64,000 bases of DNA from Spirosoma aerolatum (GTDB lineage Bacteria > Bacteroidota > Bacteroidia > Cytophagales > Spirosomataceae), in NCBI RefSeq assembly GCF_002056795.1, contig NZ_CP020104.1, positions 372,001-436,000 on the forward strand, written 5' to 3'. The notes beneath the pieces are model-generated. The model searched no databases. It was not told the origin of the DNA and was given only the letters and a program-made list of their open reading frames with translations. The translations under genes and the position numbers were made by a program. Of this stretch, positions 3,672-53,631 are shown piece by piece. The stretch's first letter is position 1; each line of letters opens with the position of its first letter.

Positions 3672-3749
3672 TCATCTGGCTTCGCTGTCATTGAAGGTCA
3701 TAAGTAGTCATACATTGCTTAATGACTCAATGATAGCGAAGCCAGATGA
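3672..3749. terminator. 23-bp inverted repeat (one mismatch), terminator-like
   Basis: Arms at 3672-3694 and 3727-3749 are complementary over 23 nt with one mismatch, around a 32-nt loop. It lies just after the stop of the beta-helix lipoprotein gene (minus strand) and just before the kinase start at 3665, so it can end transcription between them. The stem is much longer than a standard terminator and lacks a clean U-tract. Confidence 0.6.
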
Positions 3750-3763
3750 GCAGAGGGCGCCAA

Positions 3764-5296
3764 TTATTTCTCGATCAATACGTTGGTCTGGGCATTTGCC
3801 TCAAAGGTATTGGCTGTATTGAGGTCGGTATTGGCCGAAGCCCCATAGCTGACGAACACACCATACCCACCACTACCACTGATTTTTGTATTTTTAACCG
3901 ACATCAAGGCTTTCGTGCCGTAGATCGCAATGCTGGCTTTTTTAGCCGATACGATCACACTGCTGCCAGCGTTGCTAACTTCAGCATATTGCAGTTCATT
4001 CTTGCTGTCCTGCGAGTAGCAGATAATACCTTTCCAGTAGGGGGCTGAGCGGTCGGCCCCTGCGAAGACAATCTTGTTCGTCGTTGTCCCTTTGGCCGAT
4101 AGATATCCGGCTGTGTTGATTCGGATAACAGCATCGCGGTTCATTTCAATGATAACACCAGGCGCTAGTTTCCAGCCTGCGTCGACCGAAAAGTCACCAC
4201 TGATCCGGTAGGGCGTTTTGTCATTGAAACCGTTCCAGGCCACCTCATTAGTGCCTTTGATACCCGAGGGCGTAATGTCGACAATGTTACGGCCATTGCC
4301 GCCCGTGAAGGTTGAAGTGGCATCAAGCTTGGCTACGTTTTCGGCATTCAGCAGGATACCCGCTTCCGTATTGCTGGTAAAGCTGTTCTGGGCGAACTCC
4401 CGGAGAATGCCACCATCCAGCACATACAGGCCGTAGCCATCGTTTTGCGAGAACAGACAGTTTTTCAGCGCAATCTGAGCATGACTTCCTCCCGACATGA
4501 ACAGGGCGGCTTTGGTGGTGCTATATACTGTGCGGCTGCCTGCGTGCATTACCTCTACATATTCCATCGTGTTGGCGTTGCTGCCTGAGTAGAGCGACAC
4601 GCCTATCCAATAGCCTTTGGTTTTCTGTACACCCACAAATTTTATTTTATTCTCTGCCGTTCCTTTGGCGATCAGTAAACCACCGCCATCGTTGACATTC
4701 ATCCGTACATCACGTTCGAAGGCAATGACTACTCCCGGATTGATCGTCAATTCGTTGTTGACATCGATACTTTTCGTTACGATATAATCGGGCAGGTCAG
4801 GATTCAGAACGCGGTCGATCAGGGTGGTTTTAACGGTGATGTTCGCCGTAATCGCCAGAGGTTCAGCTACGGAGGCTGTTACGAGTACTTTGTCGGTACT
4901 TTTACCATTGGTGCTGGTCACGGCCAGTTCCAGTTCATACTCGCCAATTTCGTCGGGTTTGAAGGTGGGTTTGAACGAAGCCGCGTCGCTCAGGGTAACG
5001 GTGCTTTTAGCGGGTTTACGCACCAGCGTCCATTGGTACGATAAAGGCTTACCCTGACTGTCGTTGGAAGCTGACCCGTCGAGATTGACGGTCTGGCCAA
5101 CCTGTACCGATTGATCGGGACCGGCATTGGCTGTAAGCGAACCCGATGGGTTGACTTCGGTTTCTTTCTTGCAACTGGTCAGGAAGAAGAGGCTGGCCAT
5201 CAGAAACGAGATGAGCAGTTTCAGGGCCACTACTGCCGGGGCAAAGGTAATGTGGGCCGGGAGGGCCAGTGTTGGGTACGTTGGTGTTGGTTTCAT
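3764..5296 (-). CDS. PKD-like / right-handed beta-helix surface lipoprotein
   Basis: A 510-residue exported lipoprotein. A hydrophobic segment followed by the lipobox FFLTSC places the lipidated Cys near residue 42. A PKD-like Ig domain follows (NAGPDQSVQVGQTVNLDGSA, typical of PKD/REJ folds, about residues 57-140). The rest has repeated patterns such as LTINPGVVIAFERD and APGVIIEMNRDAVIRI plus IKFVG/IVFAG strands, which fits a parallel beta-helix split into two similar halves. Probably periplasmic or surface exposed, possibly carbohydrate-binding; no catalytic residues are obvious. The signal sequence would fit better from a start downstream of 5296 (a GTG lies near residue 22), so the start is uncertain. 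Confidence 0.78.
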   Translation of the reverse strand: MKPTPTYPTLALPAHITFAPAVVALKLLISFLMASLFFLTSCKKETEVNPSGSLTANAGPDQSVQVGQTVNLDGSASNDSQGKPLSYQWTLVRKPAKSTVTLSDAASFKPTFKPDEIGEYELELAVTSTNGKSTDKVLVTASVAEPLAITANITVKTTLIDRVLNPDLPDYIVTKSIDVNNELTINPGVVIAFERDVRMNVNDGGGLLIAKGTAENKIKFVGVQKTKGYWIGVSLYSGSNANTMEYVEVMHAGSRTVYSTTKAALFMSGGSHAQIALKNCLFSQNDGYGLYVLDGGILREFAQNSFTSNTEAGILLNAENVAKLDATSTFTGGNGRNIVDITPSGIKGTNEVAWNGFNDKTPYRISGDFSVDAGWKLAPGVIIEMNRDAVIRINTAGYLSAKGTTTNKIVFAGADRSAPYWKGIICYSQDSKNELQYAEVSNAGSSVIVSAKKASIAIYGTKALMSVKNTKISGSGGYGVFVSYGASANTDLNTANTFEANAQTNVLIEK

Positions 5297-5438
5297 GAAG
5301 AGGCCGCTCGTGCGGAGATTTGTTGTTTAACGGCAACAAAGGTATTGGCACACATTGCGACCTGGAATAAGGAACCGGCTGAAACGGAAAAAGCCGTGGT
5401 TGAACTGGCGTTGTTGGAGGTAAACTGTAAAAAACAGC

Positions 5439-6479: not shown

Positions 6480-6527
6480 GCGTGCCTAGAAAGAAAGTCT
6501 ACATTAAAGCGAGGTTAAAAATAGTAA

Positions 6528-6619
6528 TTTACGAACTACGACGAATGAGGTACGATCTGACTTTCGCAGGTAATTCCGGCGATAGCCATCCATCGACATC
6601 ATTCGTCGTAGTTCGTAAA
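6528..6619. terminator. 21-bp perfect inverted repeat downstream of the cytochrome gene
   Basis: Arms at 6528-6548 and 6599-6619 match perfectly over 21 nt with a 50-nt loop. In the minus direction the element follows the stop of the cytochrome gene and ends in an A/T-rich stretch, so it could terminate that transcript ahead of the kinase gene. The long loop is unusual for an intrinsic terminator. Confidence 0.55.
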
Positions 6620-6627
6620 AAGGGGAG

Positions 6628-7608
6628 TTACTTCTCTGCCAATTGGAGTTCGGCTGTTTTTTGCGCGATGTCGTGATTGATTTTCGGCACCGTTTTCAGG
6701 TATTCATAGATAGCGCCCACTTCCCGATCAGATAAAACCATTTTGGGCTCCATCGGATATTTGAGAATACTACCGTCGGGCCGTACGCCAAACTTCACGG
6801 CCCGAATAAACTGCTCTTTCGTATACCGGCGACCAATGCCCGTTTTTTCGTCAAAGGTCAGATTGGCGGTTATTACTTTTTTGCCGCCTTCGCCCACCAT
6901 TTCGATACCACCGCCATAATACCCTTTGGTTTTTTCGGGATGGACTTTGTCCTGGTCAATCAGGTCGCCTGAGTGGCAGGCATAGCAATCGCCAATGGCG
7001 TCGGCTGTGTAGCGGCCAAGGGCCACCAGATTGGCGCTATCGGGGAAAGCTACTACCTGACCCTTGTAGGGAAGCGGCTTCATAATGGTATTTGCCAGTA
7101 CTTTTGAGAACAACGAAAATTCGGAAGCCGGGGCTTCCTGGTTCGATGGTTGTACCGGGAAACGGTCGGAGCGAAGCCAGGCAATCACCGATTTCAGGTC
7201 TTCGTCGGCCATGTTCGGATACTGAGGCATAACCGGTGCATACGAGCCATCCCGTCGTATGCCTGTACGCAGGAAATACATCAGTTCACCGTCGGTCCAT
7301 TTACCAATGCCTTTTTCTTTATCCTGCGTAATATTTTTGGAGTAGAGCTTGCCGAAAATGGCTGGTACTTCGGCCAGGTATTTGCCGGTCAGGCGGTTGT
7401 TTTTGTCGGCATGGCACGACATGCACTGAATCTGGGCAATGACTTCACCACGAGCTACACGGGCTGGTGTGCTTTCAACCGTAATGGCAGGAATAGTAGG
7501 CGGGTCGTAGGTAGGGACGCCCACAATGGAGACATAAGCGCCGAAGCCAAGTAACGCCACAAGGACGCAGCCTAGGATAAGGCCGACAATTTTAAGAGCT
7601 TTTTTCAT
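6628..7608 (-). CDS. Exported diheme cytochrome c
   Basis: ATG at 7608 gives a 326-residue protein starting MKKALKIVGL with a single N-terminal hydrophobic segment (signal or anchor); an ATG at 7635 would add nine residues of no apparent use. Two CxxCH haem-binding sites are visible: CMSCH (62-66) and CYACH (208-212). Candidate axial methionines sit in MPQYPNM and MEPKM. Two class I cytochrome domains in tandem are typical of electron-transfer subunits that accept electrons from periplasmic dehydrogenases. No dehydrogenase gene is adjacent, so the redox partner is unknown. Periplasmic or inner-membrane anchored. Confidence 0.87.
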   Translation of the reverse strand: MKKALKIVGLILGCVLVALLGFGAYVSIVGVPTYDPPTIPAITVESTPARVARGEVIAQIQCMSCHADKNNRLTGKYLAEVPAIFGKLYSKNITQDKEKGIGKWTDGELMYFLRTGIRRDGSYAPVMPQYPNMADEDLKSVIAWLRSDRFPVQPSNQEAPASEFSLFSKVLANTIMKPLPYKGQVVAFPDSANLVALGRYTADAIGDCYACHSGDLIDQDKVHPEKTKGYYGGGIEMVGEGGKKVITANLTFDEKTGIGRRYTKEQFIRAVKFGVRPDGSILKYPMEPKMVLSDREVGAIYEYLKTVPKINHDIAQKTAELQLAEK

Positions 7609-7723
7609 TGTATTTGTCTGTTTAAAGAGGAACATGGCCGTTAAGACCGAGGCAAAATTGCGGGCTAAACATCTATGTACCAGTTCGGTTTCGGATGAAG
7701 CGGTATTCTATTGGGCTGAACTG

Positions 7724-7752
7724 AAAAAAGGCCGTTGTGAAACGGCCTTTTT
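7724..7752. terminator. Intrinsic terminator (compact hairpin)
   Basis: AAAAAAGGCCGTT and AACGGCCTTTTT pair around a GTGA tetraloop, with A- and T-tracts on both sides, a textbook bidirectional terminator. It follows the stop of the small exported protein gene (minus strand) and precedes the cytochrome gene. Confidence 0.85.
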
Positions 7753-7778
7753 GCTAGCTGAATTTTATAACCCGTGTC

Positions 7779-8189
7779 TTATTTCACCGAAATGGTACGC
7801 GATGGCTGAGCAACTGGTGTGTTAATGCTCATCGCATGTACACTCTTGTCGTTACCCGAAACGACCTGGATCTGGTAAGCACCATCGTTCAATTCTGATA
7901 AATCGAATTTTACGTGAACGTTACCTTCTTTTTTATTGATGTACTTTGTGGCGAGGGTAAACCCATCCGAATCCAATAATGAAATCTCCATAGCTTTACC
8001 CGGTTCGCGTTCAACCATCACATTTACTTTCGATGGTACTGCCGATGGGTAAATAGCTACTTTATACGAATTTGTAATAGCTGTTGGGCCAACCGATACC
8101 GGAGACTTTGGTAGGTGAGGTGCGTGTTTTGCAAACGCAGATGTACTCAGCAGTACAGCAGCAAGGAGTGTTGTGGCAATTGTTTTCAT
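7779..8189 (-). CDS. Small exported protein, unknown function
   Basis: A 136-residue protein with a clear signal peptide (MKTIATTLLAAVLLSTSAFA). The mature part, about 115 residues, has the beta-strand pattern SYKVAIYPSAVPSKVNVMVE ... MEISLLDSDG ... GAYQIQVVSG, resembling the small Ig-like folds of Bacteroidota secreted proteins and loosely the T9SS C-terminal domain. It lacks the usual terminal K-rich T9SS motif and is a stand-alone protein, so I do not call it a sorting domain. A TAnnTTTG box lies about 60 bp upstream. Its terminator is at 7724-7752, so it is probably monocistronic. Confidence 0.7.
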   Translation of the reverse strand: MKTIATTLLAAVLLSTSAFAKHAPHLPKSPVSVGPTAITNSYKVAIYPSAVPSKVNVMVEREPGKAMEISLLDSDGFTLATKYINKKEGNVHVKFDLSELNDGAYQIQVVSGNDKSVHAMSINTPVAQPSRTISVK

Positions 8190-8246
8190 GACTTTCAGAA
8201 GTTATTTGTTGTTTATGATTCGCCATAGCGGTTAAAAAGAACGTTG

Positions 8247-8254
8247 CAAAGCTA
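8247..8254 (-). promoter_or_regulatory. Candidate -7 box for the small exported protein gene
   Basis: On the minus strand the bases read TAGCTTTG, an exact match to the Bacteroidota TAnnTTTG element. No TTG is found at the expected -33 distance (TTT is present). Predicted leader about 50 nt. Confidence 0.4.
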
Positions 8255-10766: not shown

Positions 10767-11258
10767 ATGAAAAAACTCTATTTCCTATTCTGTCTTCTGA
10801 TTACGCTTTCGGTTCAGGCACAAACAGGTAAAAAAACGGGCTCTCTGGCCGATGTCGCGTTTATGGAAGGTCGCTGGCTGGGTACCTTTAACGGAGGACC
10901 TATTGAAGCCGCCTGGATTGCCCCTGTTGGTGATAACCTGTCGGGCTTCATGCGAATGATGAAAGACAACAAGGTGACGATGTACGAGATGTTGATCTTT
11001 GAACAAACCAGCGAAGGGCCAATCGTACTGGTTAAACATTTTAAGCCGGGCCTGATCGGGCAGGAAGAAAAAGATAAATCGGATCGCTATCGGTTTATTG
11101 AAGCCAGTTCTAACCGGGCTTTGTTCGAGAAAGAGGATGGCTCTATCCGCATCATTTACGAAAAACGCGGAGCCAATCAGTTAGTGATTCAGCGCGGCCA
11201 GCCCAAAGATGGAAACTGGGCGTTCAGCGACCTTTTTGTTTTCAAACGCGTCAACTAG
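10767..11258 (+). CDS. DUF6265-like exported protein
   Basis: 163 residues with a signal peptide (MKKLYFLFCLLITLSVQAQ). The mature part begins with the typical FMEGRWLGTFNGGPIEAAW and continues as a small beta-barrel with EMLIFEQ and ALFEKEDGSIRI strands, matching the DUF6265 family of Bacteroidota. Function unknown; the fold suggests lipocalin-like binding of a small ligand in the periplasm. It begins 45 bp after the PIN gene and ends just before a 36-bp inverted repeat. Confidence 0.75.
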   Translation: MKKLYFLFCLLITLSVQAQTGKKTGSLADVAFMEGRWLGTFNGGPIEAAWIAPVGDNLSGFMRMMKDNKVTMYEMLIFEQTSEGPIVLVKHFKPGLIGQEEKDKSDRYRFIEASSNRALFEKEDGSIRIIYEKRGANQLVIQRGQPKDGNWAFSDLFVFKRVN

Positions 11259-11267: not shown

Positions 11268-11341
11268 GTTAAAAACGTCGGCACGAGCCCTACGGAGAAT
11301 AAACATTTATTCTCCGTAGGGCTCGTGCCGACGTTTTTAAC
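11268..11341. repeat. 36-bp perfect inverted repeat, 2-nt centre, between convergent genes
   Basis: Arms 11268-11303 and 11306-11341 are perfect complements, separated only by CA. The ends carry TTAAAAA and TTTTTAA, so the element can act as a bidirectional terminator for the genes ending at 11258 (plus) and 11342 (minus); the right arm reaches the base next to the latter's stop codon. The arms are about three times longer than termination needs. Confidence 0.9.
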
Positions 11342-17151: not shown

Positions 17152-17222
17152 ATTCAAACAGGTTCAATAAAAAATCCCGGTTGATGACATCAACCGGGAT
17201 TTTTTATTGAACCTGTTTGAAT
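17152..17222. repeat. 35-bp perfect inverted repeat with 1-nt centre
   Basis: Arms 17152-17186 and 17188-17222 are perfect complements around a single A. The inner part (AAAAAATCCCGGTTGATG and its complement) resembles a terminator with T-tracts, while the outer part extends the stem well beyond need. It lies between the OmpA-like gene (plus, stop at 17145) and lspA (minus, stop at 17279). Confidence 0.92.
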
Positions 17223-18185: not shown

Positions 18186-18254
18186 GGTGTAGTCAATGAT
18201 TGGCAAGCGTTGTCGTTTCAGTCCTGACTATTCTTGCCAATCATCGACTACACC
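18186..18254. repeat. 22-bp inverted repeat (one mismatch) after proline dehydrogenase gene
   Basis: Arms at 18186-18207 and 18233-18254 pair over 22 nt with one mismatch around a 25-nt loop. It follows the stop of the minus-strand gene ending at 18268 and probably ends its transcript. The sequence is unrelated to the other intergenic repeats. Confidence 0.7.
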
Positions 18255-18267: not shown

Positions 18268-19548
18268 TTATTTCGAGCGACAATCCTTCCGGCGTTTCAA
18301 CTCATTACTGACTAAGGTAAACTCCCGGCTACTTTGTCCGGCAATCGACTTATTCTCATCGGCTCGCCGGAACAAGTAAGGCATCACGGCGTCAATAGGC
18401 CCATAGGGCACATATTTGGCCACATTGTACCCTTTATTCGCCAGGTTAAACGAGATGTTGTCACTCATGCCCAGCAACTGCGCAAAGAAAATATGGGGGT
18501 CGTTGGGAGCAATGCCCAGTCGGCTCATTTCCTGTACGCAATATTGGCAGCTTTCTTCATTGTGCGTGCCCAGGCAGACCGAAATAATATCCCGGTGTTC
18601 AAGGCAGAAATCGATGGCGGCATTGAAGTCATGGTCAGTATCATCTTTGGTGGCCTGAATAGGGTCCTGATACTCATCTTCATGGGCTCGTAGCCGTTCT
18701 TTTTCCATGTAGGCCCCCCGTACCAGTTTTACGCCCAGGTAATACCCCTTTGCCTGAGCTTCAGCCGTATCGCGCTGAAGATGAGAAAGGCTTTCCCAAC
18801 GATACATCTGGTAAGTGTTATAAACGATGGGACGTTCGTGGTTATAACGGTCCATCATTTCGTAGGCTAACGTGTCAATCGTATCCTGAATCCAGCTTTC
18901 CTCCGCATCGATAAAAATGCGGACGTTGCGTTCATAAGCCCGTCGGCAAAGCATATCGACCCGTTGCATTACCCGGTCGAATTCGGCCTTCTGGGTTTTG
19001 TTGAGCGAATCGCCTATCTGAACCGCTTCGAGGAGTTCGGTTGAGGCAATACCGGTCACTTTAAAAACTGAAAATGGGATGTCTTTCGATTCGCTGGCAC
19101 GTTCGATCGTGCGGAGGATTTCGAGGGCAGTTTCGTCGAAACTTTTTTCAGTATCTTCTCCCTCTACTGAGTAATCGAGAATGGTGCCAACATGCACGTT
19201 GTGGAGGTGTCGGATGGTTGTTTCGCAATCGCGAATACTCTCACCACCACAGAATTGCTCGAAAATTGTGTTTTTAATCAGGAATTTAATGGGAAGATGT
19301 AGGCGTAAGGCAATCTTTATAAAAAAAGTACCTAAATTTACCAGCCATCCCTGATTCATCAACGCAAATAACCAGTAGGTCTTTCGGAGTTTGAAGTCCG
19401 ACTGGGACGAAAAAGCAATCGAAGTATCCTCAAATGAAATGGGGCGTTCCGAGCTTGGTTTTCGATCGGATTGACCCTGGATAGTCTCCGGCATTAGATT
19501 ACTTCGGTTCGACATATCAGTGCTCCGTTTGGGCGGTGCTACTTGCAT
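18268..19548 (-). CDS. Proline dehydrogenase (monofunctional)
   Basis: 426 residues with a PutA-type proline dehydrogenase barrel. Visible family motifs: FSVFKVTGIAS, VRIFIDAEESWIQDTID, VYNTYQMYRWES, GVKLVRGAYMEKER, VCLGTHNEES, FAQLLGMSDNISF and the C-terminal YGPIDAVMPYLFRRADEN. It oxidises proline to pyrroline-5-carboxylate using FAD. It lacks the second (aldehyde dehydrogenase) half of PutA, as usual in Bacteroidota. The first 40 residues are disordered-looking; start sites at ATG 19515 (MSNRSN) or a later Met are possible. Divergent from the DAHP synthase gene. Confidence 0.92.
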   Translation of the reverse strand: MQVAPPKRSTDMSNRSNLMPETIQGQSDRKPSSERPISFEDTSIAFSSQSDFKLRKTYWLFALMNQGWLVNLGTFFIKIALRLHLPIKFLIKNTIFEQFCGGESIRDCETTIRHLHNVHVGTILDYSVEGEDTEKSFDETALEILRTIERASESKDIPFSVFKVTGIASTELLEAVQIGDSLNKTQKAEFDRVMQRVDMLCRRAYERNVRIFIDAEESWIQDTIDTLAYEMMDRYNHERPIVYNTYQMYRWESLSHLQRDTAEAQAKGYYLGVKLVRGAYMEKERLRAHEDEYQDPIQATKDDTDHDFNAAIDFCLEHRDIISVCLGTHNEESCQYCVQEMSRLGIAPNDPHIFFAQLLGMSDNISFNLANKGYNVAKYVPYGPIDAVMPYLFRRADENKSIAGQSSREFTLVSNELKRRKDCRSK

Positions 19549-20892: not shown

Positions 20893-20950
20893 AAAGGCTG
20901 TGGAATACGGGTAGTGAGTTTTAAACTACTACACGTACTCCACAGCCTTT
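20893..20950. terminator. Extended stem-loop between convergent genes
   Basis: AAAGGCTGTGGAATAC (20893-20908) pairs with 20935-20950 with one mismatch, and an inner GTAGT/ACTAC stem lengthens it. It separates the DAHP synthase gene (plus) from the DUF4249 gene (minus). Confidence 0.75.
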
Positions 20951-27995: not shown

Positions 27996-29336
27996 ATGCT
28001 TACGTTTGATAAACTTTCGCTCAATATACCCGATACGTCAAAACCGCGCGTTGTCATCATTGGGGGCGGCTTTGGTGGTATGAACTTAGCCAAGGCGCTG
28101 CGCGATGCCGATGTGCAGGTGGTGCTTTTCGACAAACAGAATTATAACGGTTTCTGGCCATTGCTGTATCAGGTAGCCACGGCTGGTCTGGAGCCCGACG
28201 CTATTGCTGAACCATTCCGAAAAATGTTTGATGGCTACGACGATTTTCATTATCGGATGGTACGGGTCAGCAAAATTGATCCTGAAACGAAAACGATAAC
28301 TACCCTTATTGGCGACCTGCATTACGATTATCTGGTCATTGCGACAGGGGCCAAGTCTAATTTTTTCGGCAACGAGCAGATTCAGAAATATTCGTTTCCC
28401 CTAAAAACCATCCCCGAAGCCCTCAACGTTCGAAGTCAGTTTTTACAATGTTTTGAACAGGCCAGCGTGACGACTGACCCCGAAGAACGGAAAAGTTTGT
28501 TAACCTTTGTTATTGCTGGGGCTGGACCAACAGGGGTTGAAATGGCTGGTTCTCTGGCCGAGATGCGTAAACATGTGCTTCCCTGCGATTATCCGGGTCT
28601 GAATTTCAGCGAGATGAGCATTATTGTGGTCGAAGGGCTTGGTAAAGTACTGCCTCCCATGTCGGACGAAGCCGGGCAAAAAGCACAACGCTATCTGGAA
28701 GATTTGGGTGTTATTGTTAAACTGAATACGCTGGTTGACTCGTACGATGGTGAAACGGTGACGTTTAAAAGTGGTGAACAAATCAAAACACAAACGCTGG
28801 TCTGGGCGGCTGGTGTAACGGGGGCACTCATGGATGGGATTCCGGCTGATGCGATTGAGAAAGGCCGTATTCTGGTCGACCCGATCAACCGGGTTCAGGG
28901 GCTGACTGATGTATTTGCCATTGGCGATATTGCCTTTATGAAGCTGAAAGACTATCCAAAAGGGCATCCGGGCGTAGCGCAGCCAGCCATTCAACAGGGC
29001 AAACACTTAGCCAAAAACCTGAAACACCTGCTGAAAAACGAGCCAACGACACCTTTCGAATACTTCGACAAAGGTTCACTGGCTATTGTAGGCCGCAGTC
29101 GGGCTGTAGCCGATTTGCCTGGAAAATTACATCTGGGCGGATTTATTGCCTGGATGGCCTGGTTATTCGTGCATATCTGGTATCTGGTTGGTTTCCGCAG
29201 CAAACTGATTGTGTTCAGCAACTGGATCTACCGATTATTCACCTACCAGCGGGGGACACGTATCATTATCCGCCCGTTTGTCCGCAAAGACGATAAAGTA
29301 GGGCAGGAGATCTTAGCGCACAACGAAATGAGCTAA
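27996..29336 (+). CDS. ndh: Type II NADH:quinone oxidoreductase
   Basis: 446 residues. Two Rossmann motifs: VVIIGGGFGGMNLAKAL near residue 19 (FAD) and FVIAGAGPTGVEMAGSLAEM near 170 (NADH), with the NDH-2 hallmark NYNGFWPLLYQVATAGLEP and a C-terminal FAD contact (FAIGDIAF ... QPAIQQGKHLAKNL). The C-terminal region (LGGFIAWMAWLFVHIWYLVG) is hydrophobic and should bind the membrane. It passes electrons from NADH to menaquinone without pumping protons. Cytoplasmic face of the inner membrane. Divergent from the receptor gene at 25396; followed by a hairpin. Confidence 0.9.
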   Translation: MLTFDKLSLNIPDTSKPRVVIIGGGFGGMNLAKALRDADVQVVLFDKQNYNGFWPLLYQVATAGLEPDAIAEPFRKMFDGYDDFHYRMVRVSKIDPETKTITTLIGDLHYDYLVIATGAKSNFFGNEQIQKYSFPLKTIPEALNVRSQFLQCFEQASVTTDPEERKSLLTFVIAGAGPTGVEMAGSLAEMRKHVLPCDYPGLNFSEMSIIVVEGLGKVLPPMSDEAGQKAQRYLEDLGVIVKLNTLVDSYDGETVTFKSGEQIKTQTLVWAAGVTGALMDGIPADAIEKGRILVDPINRVQGLTDVFAIGDIAFMKLKDYPKGHPGVAQPAIQQGKHLAKNLKHLLKNEPTTPFEYFDKGSLAIVGRSRAVADLPGKLHLGGFIAWMAWLFVHIWYLVGFRSKLIVFSNWIYRLFTYQRGTRIIIRPFVRKDDKVGQEILAHNEMS

Positions 29337-29349
29337 AGGCTATTTATAT

Positions 29350-29382
29350 GTGCTCGTCTGCGATTATATCGCGGACGAGCAC
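29350..29382. terminator. 15-bp hairpin between convergent genes
   Basis: GTGCTCGTCTGCGAT (29350-29364) pairs with ATCGCGGACGAGCAC (29368-29382) with one mismatch (a G:U pair in one RNA) and a 3-nt loop. It separates ndh (plus) from the barrel gene (minus). Confidence 0.75.
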
Positions 29383-29388
29383 GAAACA

Positions 29389-30216
29389 CTATCGTTTACC
29401 GAGCGGCAAATTGAACCCAAAGGCATATTTGTATTGCAACGAATAGAAATGATGCGTAGCCAACCCCTGCTGATCGGCACCCAGCCGCGTATTCGTATAA
29501 TCGGCCCAGGCACCTTGCACATCAGTTTGCAGGAAAAAATACCGGAAGATATCCAGTTTTAAACCACCACTCATGGCGGCTACGACACCATGAAAATGGA
29601 ACGGACCCTCTTGCTGATTGCCCAGTATGGTCGAAATGGTGTACGAAATAAGGGCTCCACCGCCAACCTTCCCGATCGCACTCAGTTGAAGATGTTTAGT
29701 TTGCCAGAGTTTATGGCGCTTCACCAGGTTGAGCATCAGGTAATTGTTGCCGTTGGTGTGTTGTAAATGCACAAAATCGGGTGTAACGAGCGTGTCTTTA
29801 TCGATCTGATGGCCCCGTATCTGCCCCTGTACATGGATAACCTGATTGTCGGTCACGATGTATTTCAGGTGGTCCCAGCTTAGTTCAATACCCAGATCGT
29901 GCCTGTCATTGAAGAAATAGCCGAGGTTCATGTCGTACTGGGGAACCGTCAGATTATCGAGCCGATAAAAGTCTTTCATGTCGGCCCGGTCGTGTGCGCT
30001 GGCTTTTATAAACGTAAAATCGTAATTATCAGTGGTTGTATTGCGAAAGTGGATGGTGCTGCGGGAATACGATTCGCGATTATAGCCCCATGTGAAGTAA
30101 AGGCTACCACGCATTTTGCCAAGCTTAACCGTACGTTGGGGAGGTAATGTTTGAGCGAGAACAGGTTGCAACCAGCAACAAAAGACAATACCAGACAGTA
30201 GAGCTTTAAGGTCCAT
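29389..30216 (-). CDS. Outer-membrane barrel-like protein, unknown
   Basis: 275 residues from ATG 30216 (MDLKALLSGIVFCCW...); an ATG at 30225 adds three residues. Signal peptide, then alternating strands with aromatic residues (GSLYFTWGYNRESYSRSTIH, DMNLGYFFNDRHDLGIELSW, YSLQYKYAFGFNLPLGKR) as in small outer-membrane barrels of Bacteroidota. The C-terminal strand does not end in a classical aromatic residue. No enzyme motif. Convergent with ndh. Confidence 0.65.
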   Translation of the reverse strand: MDLKALLSGIVFCCWLQPVLAQTLPPQRTVKLGKMRGSLYFTWGYNRESYSRSTIHFRNTTTDNYDFTFIKASAHDRADMKDFYRLDNLTVPQYDMNLGYFFNDRHDLGIELSWDHLKYIVTDNQVIHVQGQIRGHQIDKDTLVTPDFVHLQHTNGNNYLMLNLVKRHKLWQTKHLQLSAIGKVGGGALISYTISTILGNQQEGPFHFHGVVAAMSGGLKLDIFRYFFLQTDVQGAWADYTNTRLGADQQGLATHHFYSLQYKYAFGFNLPLGKR

Positions 30217-30323
30217 GAAGTACAATTACGGTATAGTGAATGGCGGTTACCTAAACGTAGGTAGGAAACACATGATACAAAAGACGTATTGCCCGTATAA
30301 AGTTCCCTAAACACCTACAAATG

Positions 30324-30357
30324 AAAAGGTAGCCACATTGATCAGTGACTACCTTTT
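30324..30357. terminator. Terminator of the small Tyr/His/Pro-rich lipoprotein gene
   Basis: AAAAGGTAG and CTACCTTTT (30324-30332, 30349-30357) pair, with an inner CAC/GTG stem. On the minus strand it follows the stop at 30384. Confidence 0.75.
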
Positions 30358-30383
30358 TATTTGTACTGCATAAACTAGTCAAA

Positions 30384-30575: not shown

Positions 30576-30749
30576 AGCTTTACATCCTTTTTTTGTAAAA
30601 TCATTGGTTGGATCATGCGCTGACGAAATCGATTAAGGTCTCCTCATTAATCTTTGGTTAAAGTTGTCGGGACAACAGGGATTAACGTCGATAACCAAAC
30701 GTTTGTCGCATATTCGCGTTTTGTAATTAATCGTTTGACATTTACGTCC

Positions 30750-32928: not shown

Positions 32929-33002
32929 GTGCGACCCCGATGGGGTCGAAGGTTTATAACGGTAATTGTTTCTATAGACATTCGACCCCATCGGGGTCGT
33001 AC
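32929..33002. repeat. Nested GACCCC palindrome pair
   Basis: 22-nt arms at 32929-32950 and 32981-33002 pair with one mismatch. Each arm is itself a palindrome (CGACCCC-GAT-GGGGTCG), so the DNA or RNA can fold either as one long stem or as two small hairpins. Lies downstream of the S46 gene. Confidence 0.85.
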
Positions 33003-33031: not shown

Positions 33032-33066
33032 AAACTCCCCGAAAGTTTAGTACTTTCGGGGAGTTT
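33032..33066. terminator. 15-bp perfect hairpin
   Basis: AAACTCCCCGAAAGT (33032-33046) pairs with ACTTTCGGGGAGTTT (33052-33066) around TTAGT. Second element after the S46 gene and just upstream of the DinB start at 33092. Confidence 0.8.
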
Positions 33067-35843: not shown

Positions 35844-35852
35844 TACAAGTTT

Positions 35853-35943
35853 AATAGAGCCGTATCAATAGAACGCAGATTTTTATGATTCATTAAGATC
35901 ATAATCATCATAGAAATCTGCGTTCTATTGATACGGCTCTATT
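35853..35943. repeat. 30-bp perfect inverted repeat with nested inner stem
   Basis: Arms 35853-35882 and 35914-35943 match perfectly. The 31-nt loop carries a further ATGATT/AATCAT stem. It fills most of the gap between the S9 peptidase and the NAGPA-like gene. The words in the arms (AATCTGCG type) resemble phrases common in Bacteroidota intergenic DNA. Confidence 0.92.
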
Positions 35944-35961
35944 TGTTTTAACCGCTCAGTC

Positions 35962-37601: not shown

Positions 37602-37675
37602 AAACCGCTAAGGCGCAATAGACGCAAAGAATTGCCTATCAATAATTCTTTGCGTCTATTGCGCCTTAGCGGTTT
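37602..37675. repeat. 32-bp perfect inverted repeat
   Basis: Arms 37602-37633 and 37644-37675 are perfect complements around a 10-nt loop, followed by TATTTTTG. It follows the exported-protein gene (stop 37578) and precedes the Nudix gene. Terminator-like but twice the length needed; the right arm overlaps a candidate promoter. Confidence 0.93.
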
Positions 37676-46241: not shown

Positions 46242-47642
46242 ATGGCTTCACAGTACGATGTAATCGTTGTGGGTAGCGGGCCGGGCGGCTATGTAGCTGC
46301 CATTCGCGCGTCGCAGTTGGGATTAAAAACCGCCGTCATCGAGCGCGAAAGCTTAGGTGGTATTTGTTTGAACTGGGGGTGTATACCTACCAAAGCCCTG
46401 CTGAAATCGGCGCAGGTTTTTGAATATATCAAGCACTCTACCGATTATGGCATCACGATTTCGGGTGAGTCGAAACCCGATTTTGGTGCTGTGATCAAGC
46501 GGAGTCGGGGCGTAGCCGAAAGCATGAGCAAAGGCGTACAGTTCCTGATGAAAAAGAATAAAGTTGATGTGATTTACGGTAACGGAAAAGTAAAACCCGG
46601 TAAGAAAATCGACGTGACAGCTGCCGATGGGAAAGTAACCGAGTACGAAGCCAAACATATCATTATTGCCACTGGCGGGCGGGCCCGTCAATTGCCAAGT
46701 GTCCCCATCGATGGCGTGAAAGTGATTGAATACCGGAAAGCCATGTCGCTGGAAAAACGGCCCGACTCGATGCTGGTGATTGGTTCAGGGGCTATTGGCG
46801 TTGAGTTTGCCTATGTGTACGCCAGCATGGGTACGAAAGTGACTATCGTTGAATTCCTGCCGAACGTGGTTCCGGTTGAAGACGAAGATATCTCGAAAGA
46901 ACTGGCCAAGCAATACAAAAAAATTGGCATCGATATCTATACGAAGTCTGAAGTAACTAAAGTCGATACCAGCGGCAATGGTTGCAAAGTGTTTGTGAAA
47001 ACTCCCGATGGCGAGAAAACCTTCGATGTCGATATTGTTCTGTCGGCGGCAGGGGTAGTGGCTAACATTGAAAATATTGGCCTCGAAGAAACGGGTATTT
47101 CGGTAGATCGGGGTAAAATTGTAACGGACGATTATTACCGGACCAATGTAGATGGCTATTATGCCATTGGCGACTGCACAAAAGGACAGGCGCTGGCGCA
47201 CGTAGCTTCTGCCGAAGCCATCATTTGCGTAGAAAAAATTGCTGGCCTGCCGCATGTTGAGCCGCTCAACTACAACAATATTCCGGGTTGTACATATTGC
47301 ACCCCCGAAATTGCGTCGGTAGGATATACCGAGAAAGCGGCCCGCGAAGCCGGGTATGAGCTGAAAGTCGGTAAATTCCCGTTCTCAGCGTCGGGTAAAG
47401 CCAAAGCAGCCGGTACTCCCGAAGGGTTTGTGAAGGTGATTTTCGATGCCAAATACGGCGAATTCCTGGGCGCTCACTTCATCGGTAACAACGTAACCGA
47501 AATGATTGCCGAAGTTGTGGCAGCTCGTAAGTTGGAAACCACTGGCGAAGAGATTCTGAAAGCCGTTCACCCGCACCCAACTATGTCGGAAGCGATTAAA
47601 GATGCTACCGAAGCGGCTTATGGTGAAGCGATTCACCTGTAA
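46242..47642 (+). CDS. lpdA: Dihydrolipoyl dehydrogenase
   Basis: 466 residues. FAD site GSGPGGYVAAI (11-21), redox disulphide Cys42/Cys47 in GGICLNWGCIPTKALL, NAD site VIGSGAIGVEF near 184, FAD contact GYYAIGDCTKGQALAHVA and catalytic HPHPTMSEAIKDA near the C-terminus. It is the E3 component of the 2-oxoacid dehydrogenase and glycine cleavage complexes. A TACCTTTG box at 46179-46186 is a possible -7 element. Its stop codon abuts the 37-bp inverted repeat. Confidence 0.97.
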   Translation: MASQYDVIVVGSGPGGYVAAIRASQLGLKTAVIERESLGGICLNWGCIPTKALLKSAQVFEYIKHSTDYGITISGESKPDFGAVIKRSRGVAESMSKGVQFLMKKNKVDVIYGNGKVKPGKKIDVTAADGKVTEYEAKHIIIATGGRARQLPSVPIDGVKVIEYRKAMSLEKRPDSMLVIGSGAIGVEFAYVYASMGTKVTIVEFLPNVVPVEDEDISKELAKQYKKIGIDIYTKSEVTKVDTSGNGCKVFVKTPDGEKTFDVDIVLSAAGVVANIENIGLEETGISVDRGKIVTDDYYRTNVDGYYAIGDCTKGQALAHVASAEAIICVEKIAGLPHVEPLNYNNIPGCTYCTPEIASVGYTEKAAREAGYELKVGKFPFSASGKAKAAGTPEGFVKVIFDAKYGEFLGAHFIGNNVTEMIAEVVAARKLETTGEEILKAVHPHPTMSEAIKDATEAAYGEAIHL

Positions 47643-47727
47643 TAAATGAACAATGGATAATGCAGAAAGAATAATGATACCAGATAGACAATCATTATTC
47701 TTTCTGCATTATCCATTGTTCATTTAT
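47642..47727. repeat. 37-bp perfect inverted repeat filling the lpdA gap
   Basis: Arms 47642-47678 and 47691-47727 are perfect complements around a 12-nt loop. It begins at the last base of the lpdA stop and ends 3 bp before the stop of the minus-strand glycosyltransferase gene (47731), so the entire gap is one hairpin. Words such as AATGAACAATGGATAATG recur in intergenic DNA of other bacteria. Confidence 0.95.
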
Positions 47728-49671: not shown

Positions 49672-49696
49672 TATTAGCCTAGTTGATTACAAGCTT

Positions 49697-49733
49697 AAAA
49701 ACGGCCTATAGGATGAATCCATAGGCCGTTTTT
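49697..49733. terminator. Terminator after the TerC gene
   Basis: AAAAACGGCCTAT (49697-49709) pairs with ATAGGCCGTTTTT (49721-49733), with an inner GGA/TCC pair. Classical shape with flanking A and T tracts. Confidence 0.85.
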
Positions 49734-49837
49734 AATGGAGAAAATAACAAAAAAAAGAAGTTTCATAAATTTTTAGAGGCAAAGCGTGCGTGTTACTGAG
49801 CGATCTGTACTTTTGTTTTAGAATTAGTCTAAATAAA

Positions 49838-52219
49838 ATGGATACGAAACGTTCTACACTACGTTATTTCTTAACAGCTACCCTGTTGGTATGGGGAGCT
49901 TTCTTATATACAGTTAGTTATGCTCAGTCAGTCGGAACCATCGCCGGACGGATCATAACGGCGCAGGCGCAACCACTGGCTCACGCAACGGTACGCCTGA
50001 CAAATAGCCGGGTCGGTACTACGACAAACGATCAGGGCGAGTTTGTTCTTGAACGGGTGCCGGCTGGTGAGCAAACCATCGTTATCAGCCGTATTGGACA
50101 CGGACGGGTTCGACAGACGGTGAATGTGGTTGCAGGCGAAACAACCCGACTGACGGATCTGACATTGCTGGAAACGGCCGAATCTCTTCAGGAGGTAACC
50201 GTTGAGGGGAAAAACTCCTATAAAGCCGATATCCCATCGAATAGCCTTCGGATTAAGACGCCCCTGATCGAACTACCTCAGAATGTGCAGGTAATAAATC
50301 GCCAACTGATTGCCGACCAACAGATTTTCGATATGCTGGAAGGTGTTTCGCGCAACGTGAGTGGGGTTACACGCATGGAACACTGGGATAATTACGCTCG
50401 TCTGAATATGCGGGGTTCGCGGGTAGCACCCTTCCGCAATGGGATGAATGTGGAATCGACCTGGGGCCCGCTGGCGGAAGATATGTCGATGGTGGAACGG
50501 ATCGAATTTGTGAAAGGTCCGGCTGGGTTCATGATGGCGAATGGCGAACCGAGTGGGTTTTATAATGTCGTGACCAAGAAACCGACTGGCGTTACGAAGG
50601 GCGAATTTGCCATGACAACGGGTAGTTTCGATACCTACCGGGCTACGCTCGATCTGGATGGAAAGCTGAGCCAGGATGGCAATCTGCTCTATCGGTTGAA
50701 CATTATGGGCCAGTCGAAAGGCTCGTTCCGCGATTTTGAATACAACAACCGATACACCATTGCGCCCGTTCTGAAATATAAACTGAGCGATAAGACATCC
50801 ATTACGGCTGAATATACCTATCAATATTCGCAGATGTCGGTGATTGGTTCTGCGTATGTTTTTTCGGGTACGGGGTTGGGCGTTTACCCCCGGAATATTT
50901 CACTAGCCTCGGCCAACCTCGATCCGACGAAAATAAATGATCATAGCTCTTTCCTGATTCTGGAGCATCAGCTTAGTCCCAACTGGAAACTGACGGGGCA
51001 GTTGGCCTATTTTAATTCGACGCAGATTGGTAGCTCGATGTGGGCCGATTCGGCTAAGGCCAATGGTAATATTTACCGTCGTGTCAGTATCTGGGATGCG
51101 GCTAACCAGGGCAAGTTCGCGCAGATTTTTGTGAATGGCGATGTAACGACGGGATCTGTTACGCATCGTATTCTGGCTGGTCTGGATTTGGGCAGCAAAA
51201 AATATTATGCTGACTGGGGCCAAAGCTTCCCGCTTTATGATAAGGATTTCGTCTTCAACGCGAATACACCCAATTATTACTTGCCCACCAATTTACTACC
51301 TAGGTTCGATCGTTCGCAAAGCCTGATCAATCGGGCAGGGGCCAACGTGCTGAGTCAGTCATACAGTGGGCTCTATGTGCAGGACGAACTCCGGTTTTTG
51401 CAGGATAAAGTTCGTCTGACGCTGGCCGGTCGGATTACATCAACAAAAGACAGTCAATACGGTGCGGGTTCGGATGTAACCAAAGCGACACCACGGGTTG
51501 GATTGAGTGTTTCGCTGAACAAGCAAACATCTGTTTACGCGCTCTACGATCAGGCATTTGTTCCGCAGGCAGGGGCTGACCGACAAGGAAATGCGTTTAA
51601 ACCCATCACCGGCAACAATACCGAAATTGGCCTCAAGAAAGACTGGGCGGGTGGCCGCTGGAACTCGACCATTTCGGCGTACAAAATCACGAAGAATAAC
51701 GTCCTGACAACCGATCCGACCAACCCGAATTTTTCGATTCAGCTTGGACAGACACAAACGAGTGGGGTTGAGTTCGACATCCGGGGCGAAATCGTATCGG
51801 GCCTGAATCTGATTGCCAATTACGCCTATACGGATTCGAAAATCACGAGGGATACTGAAGCTAAAAATGTGGATCTGCCAGTTCCGGGTTTTAGCAAACA
51901 TGTTACTAATGCCTGGTTGTCATATCGTGTCCAAAAAGGTGCCGTACAGGGACTTGGCCTTTCACTGGGATACCAATGGCAGCTTGACCGCTACGGCTGG
52001 TTTTCGGATGCTGTGGATAAGAATCCTACACTGCCTAATTCGTTTCAGGCTGATGCGGCTATTTCCTGGCAAACCGGTCCCTTCAACGTAGCGCTGAATG
52101 TGAATAACCTGTTCGATGCCTATATCTATTCGGGCGCTTACTATTCATGGAGTAATGCCTACTACTGGCAGGCACAGGCTCCCCGCAATTTCCGCTTAAG
52201 CCTGGGGTATAAGTTTTAA
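49838..52219 (+). CDS. TonB-dependent siderophore receptor
   Basis: 793 residues from ATG 49838; a codon at 49790 would add 16 residues without a signal peptide. Signal peptide, CarboxypepD_reg-like domain (GTIAGRIITAQAQPLAHATV), plug domain with PLIELPQNVQVINRQLIADQ, LNMRGSRVAPFRNGMN and ERIEFVKGPAGFMMANGEPS, then a barrel ending NFRLSLGYKF. The FhuA/FpvA-type plug (LPQNVQV ... GFYNVVTKKP) points to ferric siderophore import. A possible -7 box TACTTTTG is at 49808-49815. The PepSY gene downstream fits iron uptake. Confidence 0.92.
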   Translation: MDTKRSTLRYFLTATLLVWGAFLYTVSYAQSVGTIAGRIITAQAQPLAHATVRLTNSRVGTTTNDQGEFVLERVPAGEQTIVISRIGHGRVRQTVNVVAGETTRLTDLTLLETAESLQEVTVEGKNSYKADIPSNSLRIKTPLIELPQNVQVINRQLIADQQIFDMLEGVSRNVSGVTRMEHWDNYARLNMRGSRVAPFRNGMNVESTWGPLAEDMSMVERIEFVKGPAGFMMANGEPSGFYNVVTKKPTGVTKGEFAMTTGSFDTYRATLDLDGKLSQDGNLLYRLNIMGQSKGSFRDFEYNNRYTIAPVLKYKLSDKTSITAEYTYQYSQMSVIGSAYVFSGTGLGVYPRNISLASANLDPTKINDHSSFLILEHQLSPNWKLTGQLAYFNSTQIGSSMWADSAKANGNIYRRVSIWDAANQGKFAQIFVNGDVTTGSVTHRILAGLDLGSKKYYADWGQSFPLYDKDFVFNANTPNYYLPTNLLPRFDRSQSLINRAGANVLSQSYSGLYVQDELRFLQDKVRLTLAGRITSTKDSQYGAGSDVTKATPRVGLSVSLNKQTSVYALYDQAFVPQAGADRQGNAFKPITGNNTEIGLKKDWAGGRWNSTISAYKITKNNVLTTDPTNPNFSIQLGQTQTSGVEFDIRGEIVSGLNLIANYAYTDSKITRDTEAKNVDLPVPGFSKHVTNAWLSYRVQKGAVQGLGLSLGYQWQLDRYGWFSDAVDKNPTLPNSFQADAAISWQTGPFNVALNVNNLFDAYIYSGAYYSWSNAYYWQAQAPRNFRLSLGYKF

Positions 52220-52221
52220 AC

Positions 52222-52282
52222 AGTTTACACCACCCTAAACCCTTCCCTGAAAGCAGGGGAGGGGTTTAGGGTGGTGTAAACT
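52222..52282. repeat. 28-bp inverted repeat (few mismatches) after the siderophore receptor
   Basis: Left arm 52222-52249 pairs with 52255-52282 with a long perfect stretch of 21 bp at the base and mismatches near the 5-nt centre. The words CACCACCCTAAACCC resemble a phrase common in Bacteroidota intergenic DNA. Lies between the receptor and PepSY genes. Confidence 0.82.
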
Positions 52283-52363
52283 CCTCCCCGGTTAGCTATG
52301 AAACCAGAAGAAGGGATAAAATAGAGGCTTGATTAAGAACTGATAGTCAAAGTATACCTAACA

Positions 52364-53557
52364 ATGACGGCAAAAAAACTGGTTGGAAAACTACACCTTT
52401 GGCTCGGGCTGGCGTCGGGGCTGTTGGTGTTTATTGTGGCGATTACAGGCTGTATTCTGGCTTTTGAACAGGAAATAAAGACGGTTCTACGGCCTTATCA
52501 ATTTGTAGAGGCAGCCAATAAGCGAGCGACGTTGCCACCTTCCCGATTAAAAGCTATCGCCGAAAAAGAAATCACAGGGAAGATGGCTAAAGCTGTCACC
52601 TATGGGGGTATTGGCCGAAGTGCGATTGTCTCGTTTTACGGAGCCGCTCCTGATTATTTCTATCAGGTATACCTAAATCCCTACACCGGAAAATTGCTCC
52701 ACATAACGGACGAAGAGACGGACTTTTTTCATTTCATTCTACACGGTCATTACTATCTGTGGTTACCTGAATCAATCGGCCAGCCGGTTGTGGCTTACGG
52801 AACCCTGGTTTTTACGATTCTATTGATTACAGGACTGGTACTTTGGTGGCCGAAAAACCTCAACAAGACGAACCGACAAAAGAGCTTTACCATTAAATGG
52901 AAAGCGCAATGGCGACGCGTCAATTACGATCTGCATAATGTGCCAGGTTTTTATGCGCTTGTATTCGCCTTGATGTTGGCGTTGACGGGCCTGGTTTTTG
53001 GCCTGCAATGGTTTTCGAAGTCGGTTTACTGGGTGACAACAGGAGGGAAAGCCCTGCCAGCGTTTCAAATTCCTTTATCCGATACAGCGGCTGCCAAACT
53101 GCCCAATTCGCCACTCGATGCTGTCTGGCAGCGCTTATCGATTCGTAAACCTGCTACGGCCGGAATCTATATTTCCTGTCCCGAGAAACCGTCAGAGTCA
53201 ATCTTTGCGTACGTCAATTACAAACCGGGCACGTATTACAAGCTCGATTATTACACCTTCGATCAACAGACGCTTAAACCGCTGGATATCGGTGGCCCTT
53301 ACTCCGGGACTTATACTAAAGCCGGGTTTGGGGATAAACTACGCCGGATGAATTACGATATTCATACCGGAGCTATATTGAGTTTACCCGGAAAAATTCT
53401 AGCGTTTTGTGCCAGTCTGGTTTGTGCTAGTCTGCCCGTTTCGGGCTTTATCATCTGGTGGGGCCGTCGAAAGAAAAAATCGAAAAATGCAAAACTACCC
53501 GTTACAACAGCAACGCCTACGAAAACGGCGCATCGACCAATGAGCCGGGTTGTTTGA
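52364..53557 (+). CDS. PepSY-associated membrane protein (iron-uptake type)
   Basis: 397 residues with four membrane helices: LHLWLGLASGLLVFIVAITG, a second near 148-170, ALVFALMLALTGLVFGLQWF and a last near 350-372 (LAFCASLVCASLPVSGFIIW). It belongs to the PepSY_TM/PiuB family, in which HLWLGLASG and HNVPGFYALVFAL are typical. These proteins usually accompany siderophore receptors and are proposed to reduce or release iron at the inner membrane. Conserved His residues (HLWLG, HGHYYLW, DLHNV, DIHTG) might ligate haem. Confidence 0.87.
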   Translation: MTAKKLVGKLHLWLGLASGLLVFIVAITGCILAFEQEIKTVLRPYQFVEAANKRATLPPSRLKAIAEKEITGKMAKAVTYGGIGRSAIVSFYGAAPDYFYQVYLNPYTGKLLHITDEETDFFHFILHGHYYLWLPESIGQPVVAYGTLVFTILLITGLVLWWPKNLNKTNRQKSFTIKWKAQWRRVNYDLHNVPGFYALVFALMLALTGLVFGLQWFSKSVYWVTTGGKALPAFQIPLSDTAAAKLPNSPLDAVWQRLSIRKPATAGIYISCPEKPSESIFAYVNYKPGTYYKLDYYTFDQQTLKPLDIGGPYSGTYTKAGFGDKLRRMNYDIHTGAILSLPGKILAFCASLVCASLPVSGFIIWWGRRKKKSKNAKLPVTTATPTKTAHRPMSRVV

Positions 53558-53631
53558 CAGGATTTACAGGATGAACAGGATTTTTTACCTTGCAGTGCGT
53601 TATAATCCTGATAATCGTGTAAATCCTGTCA
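53555..53631. repeat. 28-bp inverted repeat (three mismatches) before the helicase gene
   Basis: Arms 53555-53582 and 53604-53631 pair over 28 nt with three mismatches. The left arm starts in the PepSY stop codon and the right arm ends 10 bp before the GTG start of the helicase. The phrase TGACAGGATTTACAGGATGA matches a word family common in Bacteroidota intergenic repeats. Confidence 0.82.

What the first reader, a model, noticed from the sequence alone, without database searches (positions are those of the whole stretch)
3672..53631. A class of long, near-perfect, sequence-unrelated intergenic inverted repeats
Across the window, many gaps hold inverted repeats with 15-37 bp arms (3672, 6528, 11268, 17152, 18186, 29350, 32929, 33032, 35853, 37602, 47642, 52222, 53555). 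Five are perfect at 30-37 bp. Arms differ between sites, so they are not copies of one mobile REP. A terminator needs 7-12 bp; perfect pairing of 30+ bp should decay by mutation unless something restores it. Possible causes: template-switch correction of quasi-palindromes during replication, or selection for an RNA/DNA-level function such as extremely strong bidirectional termination, RNase III-type processing or mRNA 3'-end protection. This is the most system-like undescribed signal here.
Basis: partly seen in the sequence, partly recalled or inferred. Interest (0 to 1): 0.8.

Follow-up and report, generated by a model that had tools for sequence, protein, structure and literature searches.

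The report
Self-mirroring DNA hairpins behind genes
Just behind many genes of this bacterium sit long, nearly perfect DNA hairpins whose two halves tend to change together and whose middles sometimes flip over; most likely a known kind of DNA-copying slip keeps rewriting one half from the other, acting on a mixture of gene-end signals and short repeated elements.

Summary
The inverted repeats (IRs) are real and far above chance: 77 of score >=14 in 464 kb of this Spirosoma genome, 0 in five resamplings. They lie 3' of genes: 2.09/kb in convergent gaps, 0.12/kb in divergent gaps, median 15 bp after the stop in tandem gaps. They are not one class: some look like ordinary terminators; 48 of 111 fall into ten dispersed families, one flanking a RAYT gene. 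So "sequence-unrelated" is only partly right. Between G000 and a sister species (flanks about 92% identical) 63 stem pairs changed on both sides and stayed paired; permutation mean 19.4, maximum 30; 32 of 63 are transversions, as among loop changes. In two independent species pairs 8 of 48 loops (5 of 36, 3 of 12) are inverted in place, the mark of intermolecular template switching. At window 17152 the left arm was overwritten by a copy of the right one in the G000 lineage. Against: unfiltered, one-sided changes outnumber mirrored ones. Termination is inferred only: 30 of 43 long family hairpins lack a U-tract. The mechanism is known; its footprint at bacterial gene-end hairpins I did not find in print.

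The parts
3672..3749 (.). IR, arms 23 bp (22/23), loop 32, 3' of the minus-strand ORF 3764-5296
   Evidence: weaker in G032 (score 12)
6528..6619 (.). IR, arms 24 bp (23/24), loop 44, 3' of the minus-strand ORF 6628-7635
   Evidence: weaker in G032 (score 11)
11268..11341 (.). Perfect 36-bp IR, loop 2, 9 bp after the stop of ORF 10767-11258
   Evidence: G032 has 32/32 and G029 28/28 at the same gap with changed arms; 11 mirrored and 1 single change vs G032
17152..17222 (.). Perfect 35-bp IR: 24-bp terminator-like core plus an outer extension seen in G000 but not in G032 or G029; convergent gap
   Evidence: the left outer arm of G032 and of G029 does not match the right arm; in G000 it is its complement
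18186..18254 (.). IR, arms 29 bp (25/29; 22-bp part with one mismatch), 3' of the minus-strand ORF 18268-19548 (proline dehydrogenase)
   Evidence: 2 single, 0 mirrored changes vs G032; 3 single, 0 mirrored vs G029
20893..20950 (.).
   Evidence: no comparable gap found in G032 or G029
29334..29398 (.). Imperfect IR (74% of 31) with 15-bp inner arms 29350-29364 / 29368-29382, convergent gap
30316..30365 (.).
   Evidence: 1 mirrored, 0 single changes vs G032
32929..33002 (.). IR, arms 30 bp (27/30), two-member family with CCCCGATGGGGT, after ORF 30654-32885
33032..33066 (.). Short terminator-like IR, perfect 15 bp, loop 5; stem unchanged in G032 and G029
35853..35943 (.). IR 36/37 bp, loop 17; dispersed family with ATAGAACGCAGATTT core
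   Evidence: 5 mirrored, 0 single changes vs G032; 0 mirrored, 3 single vs G029
37602..37675 (.). Perfect 32-bp IR, loop 10; family CCGC.AAGGCGC..CGC.AAG
   Evidence: identical in G032; 1 mirrored transversion and 2 single changes vs G029
47642..47727 (.). Perfect 37-bp IR, loop 12, convergent gap between a Pyr_redox (lpd-like) and a glycosyltransferase gene; family AATGGATAATG; loop scored inverted relative to G032
49695..49735 (.).
   Evidence: 4 single, 0 mirrored vs G032, 2 and 2 vs G029
52222..52282 (.). IR 25/26 bp, loop 9, 2 bp after the stop of ORF 49790-52219; no IR >=14 in G032
53555..53631 (.). IR 25/28 bp beginning at the stop codon of ORF 52364-53557; score 12 in G032, none found in G029, 16 in G024

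Best explanation
The IRs are 3'-end hairpins of mixed origin (intrinsic-terminator-like stems, REP/REPIN-like and other dispersed palindromic elements) whose arms are homogenised, extended and sometimes flipped by template switching. When DNA synthesis stalls at the hairpin, the nascent strand copies the other arm instead of its template, so one arm becomes the complement of its partner; or it switches to the opposite strand and back, so the loop is inverted in place. SHOWN here: more mirrored changes than permutation gives, with the transversion share of loop changes in G000/G032; inverted loops in two independent species pairs, in family and in single-copy hairpins; one polarised stem extension. 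INFERRED: that replication rather than repair or recombination is the setting; that termination or 3'-end protection keeps hairpins at gene ends; that families arrive by mobility.
For:: G000/G032, 47 conserved hairpins, 1126 stem cells: 63 mirrored (32 transversions), 72 single (32 transversions), permuted mirrored mean 19.4, max 30 of 1000; loops >=6 nt: 36 tested, 25 forward, 5 inverted, 6 unresolved; forward-loop changes 27 transversions of 46. G006/G009, 23 conserved hairpins: 11 mirrored vs mean 4.2, max 10; 12 loops: 5 forward, 3 inverted, 4 unresolved. With a 1% threshold 0.48 of 48 would be expected inverted; Poisson P about 5e-8. By the sequences printed, six of the eight inverted loops carry further substitutions, so they are not mere assembly flips; in G000/G032 the excess holds for family (30 vs 8.4) and single-copy hairpins (33 vs 11.1); 3 of the 8 inverted loops are in hairpins without a second copy in the sampled DNA; at 17152 G032 and G029 share a left arm that does not match the right, G000 has the complement of its right arm; gene-end placement. 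Passages of PMC8794818 and PMC8604942 name multiple compensatory changes, stem extension and spacer inversion as marks of this mechanism.
Against: Without the filter that both species keep an IR >=14, single changes outnumber mirrored ones: 113 vs 76 (63 hairpins, G000/G032) and 51 vs 13 (34 hairpins, G006/G009). In G006/G009 9 of 11 mirrored changes are transitions, which stepwise compensation through G.U would also give, and its four family hairpins show 0 mirrored and 7 single changes. Five G000 hairpins hold 32 of the 63 mirrored changes (11, 7, 5, 5 and 4) and may be whole replacements by another copy; the other 42 have 31 mirrored and 69 single (no permutation run on that subset). In G000/G029 and G032/G029 no loop was scored inverted, but 10 of 13 and 12 of 16 were unresolved. 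The 47642 loop is the weakest inverted one (0.14 per base). Of the six inverted in the reverse G032 run, one more is ambiguous (0.21 vs 0.20). The permutation keeps base composition but not clustering of changes. Alignments near loops are ambiguous.
Confidence: 0.72

Rival explanations
1. Purifying selection on an RNA hairpin (terminator or 3'-end stabiliser) keeps pairing by stepwise compensatory mutations; no special mutation process is needed.
For: Placement 3' of genes, 4 of 119 divergent gaps with an IR >=16; many short single-copy IRs have a U-tract (36 of 66); 10 G.T against 6 A.C single changes on the sense strand; 9 of 11 mirrored changes in G006/G009 are transitions.
Against: Does not explain inverted loops (8 of 48). 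In G000/G032 32 of 63 mirrored changes are transversions, like loop changes (Fisher P 0.44), although these need an unpaired intermediate. Arms of 30+ bp exceed what termination needs (general knowledge).
Confidence: 0.3
2. Turnover of mobile hairpins: differences between species reflect replacement of one REP/REPIN-like copy by another (transposition or ectopic conversion), each copy arriving perfect.
For: 48 of 111 hairpins in ten families; RAYT-like gene L153 flanked by two TAACGCGGGTGG..CCCGCG hairpins; 22 of 72 hairpins without IR >=14 in the sister; in G032 a hairpin of the AGTGAGAAGTGAGG family, 76 nt longer gap, sits in the loop of a small stem that G000 has without it.
Against: Mirrored excess and inverted loops also in hairpins without a second sampled copy; hairpins with few mirrored changes keep most of stem and flanks.
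Confidence: 0.3
3. Loss of the hairpin nuclease SbcCD lets long palindromes survive in this genome.
For: No SbcD above cut-off in G000 or in G024, the genome of highest density (180/Mb at >=20); the E. coli-type exonuclease I C-terminal domain is absent too (where only E. coli of 14 controls has it).
Against: G032 has SbcD (166.5 bits) and 84/Mb against 71/Mb in G000; G029 and G033, also with SbcD, have 83 and 117/Mb (G006 and G009, with SbcD, 25 and 34/Mb). SbcD is over cut-off in 26 of 36 genus genomes.
Confidence: 0.05

Closest known systems
Quasipalindrome template-switch mutagenesis (phage, E. coli reporters, yeast)
   Same: One arm becomes the complement of the other; intermolecular switching inverts the spacer (passages of PMC7202029; PMC8604942)
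   Different: Here inferred from natural divergence of many long intergenic hairpins, with loops of up to 16 nt inverted; no mutation rate measured
Template-switch mutations creating and maintaining RNA hairpins (PNAS 2022, PMC8794818; passages read)
   Same: Multiple compensatory changes, stem extension, loop inversion
   Different: That study used rRNA and microRNA genes; it found compensatory change plus loop inversion extremely rare and 69 cases of loop inversion alone, typically of four-nucleotide loops. Here 8 of 48 loops >=6 nt are inverted, at gene ends
REP/REPIN elements with RAYT transposases; GTAG- and CGTC-tagged REPs (PMC3116915, PMC3733652; passages read)
   Same: One family flanks a RAYT-like gene; another looks like inverted dimers of TGTC-tagged units; the REPIN authors note common compensatory changes
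   Different: No hairpin of the other nine families was seen at the five Y1_Tnp loci (other transposases not searched); 63 of 111 hairpins are single-copy in the sample
Intrinsic (Rho-independent) terminators
   Same: Position after the stop codon; short ones often carry U-tracts
   Different: 30 of 43 long family hairpins show no U-tract; arms of 22-39 bp

Membership tests
Template-switch (quasipalindrome) mutation products | Changes mirrored in both arms beyond chance | tested here: met
   63 vs permuted mean 19.4, max 30; 11 vs 4.2, max 10
Template-switch (quasipalindrome) mutation products | Spacer inversion in place | tested here: met
   5 of 36 and 3 of 12 loops; 6 and 4 unresolved
Template-switch (quasipalindrome) mutation products | Stem extension by copying of one arm, polarised by an outgroup | tested here: met
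   One case, window 17152
Template-switch (quasipalindrome) mutation products | Arises as a single event during replication | not testable with these tools
   Needs strains or mutation-accumulation lines
Intrinsic terminators | Stable stem followed by a U-tract at a gene end | tested here: inconclusive
   Gene-end position met; U-tract (>=5 T in 7 nt near the 3' arm end, either end for convergent gaps) in 62 of 144 non-divergent IRs: 36 of 60 short single-copy, 12 of 42 long family
Intrinsic terminators | RNA 3' ends at the hairpin | not testable with these tools
   No transcript data
RAYT-associated REP/REPIN | Copies flank a RAYT gene | tested here: inconclusive
   Met for the TAACGCGGGTGG..CCCGCG family at 1 of 5 Y1_Tnp loci (L153); not seen for the other families there
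CGTC/TGTC-tagged REP dimers | Tag plus AT-started 8-9 bp stem, inverted dimer | tested here: inconclusive
   By eye the TGTCATTCC..GGAATC family (8 of 111) resembles the description read; no consensus alignment was run
One mobile REP family | All copies share one sequence | tested here: not met
   Ten families plus 63 single-copy of 111

The most novel reading that the evidence does not exclude
Bacterial gene-end hairpins are modular, flip-flopping elements: loops invert on the time scale of sister species, arms are rewritten together, and hairpins grow by insertion of further hairpins at their tips. A shared apical core (GGCTGACGC/GCGTCAGCC, GCCGGATGG) caps otherwise unrelated arm families, which would point to an undescribed element that targets hairpin loops. 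Loop inversion would also explain the reported excess of spacer polymorphism at bacterial terminators.
Probability: 0.22. Interest if true: 0.8.

Novelty: new variant of a known kind. Interest (0 to 1): 0.55.

Why it matters
Paired changes in stems are commonly read as proof of selection on RNA structure. If arms are rewritten together by one mutation, covariation at bacterial 3'-end hairpins and REPINs overstates that selection. Frequent loop inversion gives a ready test for the reported spacer-SNV excess at bacterial terminators (PMC13155455, passages; 'template switch' does not occur in its main text): clustered spacer variants should be reverse complements. Spirosoma would be a convenient natural system: 25 to 180 IRs of score >=20 per Mb in the seven genomes sampled.

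Tried and rejected
1) One mobile family: rejected. 2) SbcCD loss as the needed cause: G000 lacks SbcD but G032, G029 and G033 have it with similar or higher density. 3) Rfam: no match in the window at gathering scores. 4) Plasmid search with 35840-35960: no match. 5) Searching papers for six repeat strings: 0 papers (this library only). 6) G.U versus A.C as a test of RNA selection: 10 vs 6, too few. 7) One-armed states: among hairpins absent or much weaker in the other species, 'one arm only' in 3 of 27, 3 of 35, 1 of 13, 0 of 16; both arms present but mismatched was the commonest class (17, 15, 11, 9). 8) More distant pairs (G029, G024, G033) left most loop orientations unresolved. 9) A third close pair (G035/G025) could not be fetched.
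Full report
SETTING. The window is bases 372001-436000 of a single 7.96-Mb contig, G000. A named Spirosoma panaciterrae contig matches G000 over one 5,550-bp alignment at 84% (L205), so the genus is most likely Spirosoma. Closest sampled relatives are G032 (96% over the lpd gap; about 92% in hairpin flanks) and G029 (84% and 85%); G009/G006 form a second close pair, 96.9% over 1,340 bp at lpd and about 93% in hairpin flanks.

OBSERVATION. Each listed place holds an IR. Four are perfect at 32-37 bp and 35853 has one mismatch. In 464 kb (window plus 20 spaced stretches) there are 77 IRs at score >=14, 45 at >=18, 20 at >=25, and none in five order-2 resamples; 71 of 77 are intergenic by a simple ORF caller of mine, and 5 of 77 have a called gene across the loop. 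In 1.044 Mb no IR of score >=16 and loop <=60 lies wholly inside a called gene with a 15-bp margin; gaps of at least 30 bp carry one in 35 of 104 convergent, 58 of 388 tandem and 4 of 119 divergent cases; in tandem gaps the median distance from stop to IR is 15 bp (59 IRs). Of 153 IRs >=14, 91 have perfect arms, 24 of them >=25 bp and 15 >=30 bp; the longest arm is 39 bp.

WHAT THEY ARE MADE OF. Of 111 hairpins (score >=16), 48 fall into ten sequence families of 8, 7, 6, 6, 6, 5, 3, 3, 2 and 2; 63 are single-copy in the sample. One family flanks both sides of a Y1_Tnp (RAYT-like) gene (L153). The largest family resembles by eye the TGTC-tagged REP dimers described in PMC3733652 (passages). Short single-copy IRs often have a U-tract (36 of 66), long family ones less often (12 of 43). 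So the set mixes terminator-like stems, REP-like elements and others.

ARMS CHANGE TOGETHER. At the lpd gap five species (G000, G032, G033, G024, G040) have a hairpin of the same family, with arms 37/37, 35/36, 37/37, 38/38 and 36/36 matched although the sequences differ. Other relatives viewed there have shorter or imperfect stems (arms up to 25 bp), among them G029, which is nearer to G000 than G033, G024 and G040 are; so the family hairpin was lost there or gained more than once. Systematically, 72 of 101 G000 hairpins have a matching gap in G032: 47 conserved, 22 with no IR >=14 or absent, 2 with another IR, 1 too long. In the 47, 1126 stem cells: 983 same, 63 mirrored, 72 single, 8 changed on both sides without pairing; permuting right-arm changes among like bases gives mean 19.4 and maximum 30 of 1000. 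G006 to G009: 36 of 36 with matching gap, 23 conserved, 12 without IR >=14, 1 other; 11 mirrored, 28 single; mean 4.2, maximum 10. In G000/G032 transversions are 32 of 63 mirrored, 32 of 72 single and 27 of 46 forward-loop changes; Fisher's test shows no difference. In G006/G009 only 2 of 11 mirrored are transversions. Without requiring an IR in both species, mirrored/single are 76/113 and 13/51: one-sided divergence goes on beside correction.

LOOPS FLIP. For loops of at least 6 nt I compared the orthologous loop forward and reversed, with a null from loops of other hairpins. G000/G032: 25 forward, 5 inverted, 6 unresolved of 36. G006/G009: 5 forward, 3 inverted, 4 unresolved of 12. CTGTATTA/TAATACAG and GCATCTACCGTTT/AAAACGGTAGATGCC are exact reverse complements in their shared part; the other six carry extra changes. 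The reverse runs give 6 of 37 (one of them ambiguous) and 3 of 12. Three of the eight are in hairpins without a second sampled copy. The 47642 hairpin of the window is among the eight but is the weakest of them. In G000/G029 and G032/G029 no loop was scored inverted (3 and 4 forward, 10 and 12 unresolved).

A POLARISED CASE IN THE WINDOW. At 17152 the inner terminator-like stem is shared by G000 and G032 (24 bp) and G029 (21 bp). Left of it G032 and G029 have similar sequence that does not match their right side; G000 has instead the exact complement of its own right side, extending the stem to 35 bp. Overwriting of one arm from the other in the G000 lineage is the simplest reading.

GAIN AND LOSS. 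Some hairpins are present in one sister and missing in the other (for example G032 C9:129015, G000 6.874 Mb). In G032 C2:54952 a 47-bp-arm hairpin of another family sits in the tip of a small stem whose arms G000 keeps; which state is ancestral was not determined. Of 377 hairpins from seven genomes, 27, from several arm families, carry an apical motif (GGCTGACGC/GCGTCAGCC, GCCGGATGG or near variants): 1.98/kb in tips against 0.176/kb overall. The motif was chosen after looking at the data, and some of these hairpins are orthologues or one family, so this is a lead only.

MECHANISM. Arm copying, stem extension and spacer inversion are the marks of template switching named in PMC8794818 and PMC8604942 (passages); switching at quasipalindromes is an established assay in E. 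coli (PMC7202029, passages). Spacer inversion is ascribed there to intermolecular switching (PMC8604942). Stepwise compensation does not invert loops. Selection for gene-end function may still decide which hairpins persist. Absence of SbcD is not needed: G032 has it and as many hairpins.

RELATION TO PRINT. The mechanism is known. A tree-of-life survey (PMC13155455, passages) reports enrichment of IRs after stop codons and excess spacer SNVs at bacterial terminators, without the words 'template switch' in its main text. REPIN authors note frequent compensatory changes (PMC3116915, passage). PMC8604942 cites earlier work on conserved short IRs in non-coding DNA of proteobacteria, which I did not read. 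My searches (lists capped in several) showed no paper on loop inversion at bacterial terminators or REPs; the library lacks most subscription journals, and of papers I read passages only.

Noticed in passing
L153 (G000:C1 about 5.894 Mb): A Y1_Tnp (RAYT-like) gene flanked on both sides by long hairpins of the TAACGCGGGTGG..CCCGCG type.
   Followed up: partly
Tips of 27 of 377 hairpins in seven Spirosoma genomes: Several unrelated arm families share the apical motif GGCTGACGC/GCGTCAGCC or GCCGGATGG.
   Followed up: partly
Loci L154-L273: The CCGC.AAGGCGC..CGC.AAG repeat occurs in genomes of many phyla, in hairpins and without; I found no name for it.
   Followed up: partly
Genus genomes: SbcD is not over the cut-off in 10 of 36 Spirosoma genomes (two of these of low completeness), and in at least eight others its gene lies within about 2 kb of a contig end, as if next to a repeat.
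   Followed up: no
window:54416-54542: An 83% IR of AGCAGGGAGTGGAGAGCAGGG type, loop 67, inside the long ORF 53641-57654 (outside the loop limit of the counts).
   Followed up: no
G032 C2:54952-55057: A 47-bp-arm hairpin nested in the loop of a small stem that G000 has without it.
   Followed up: partly
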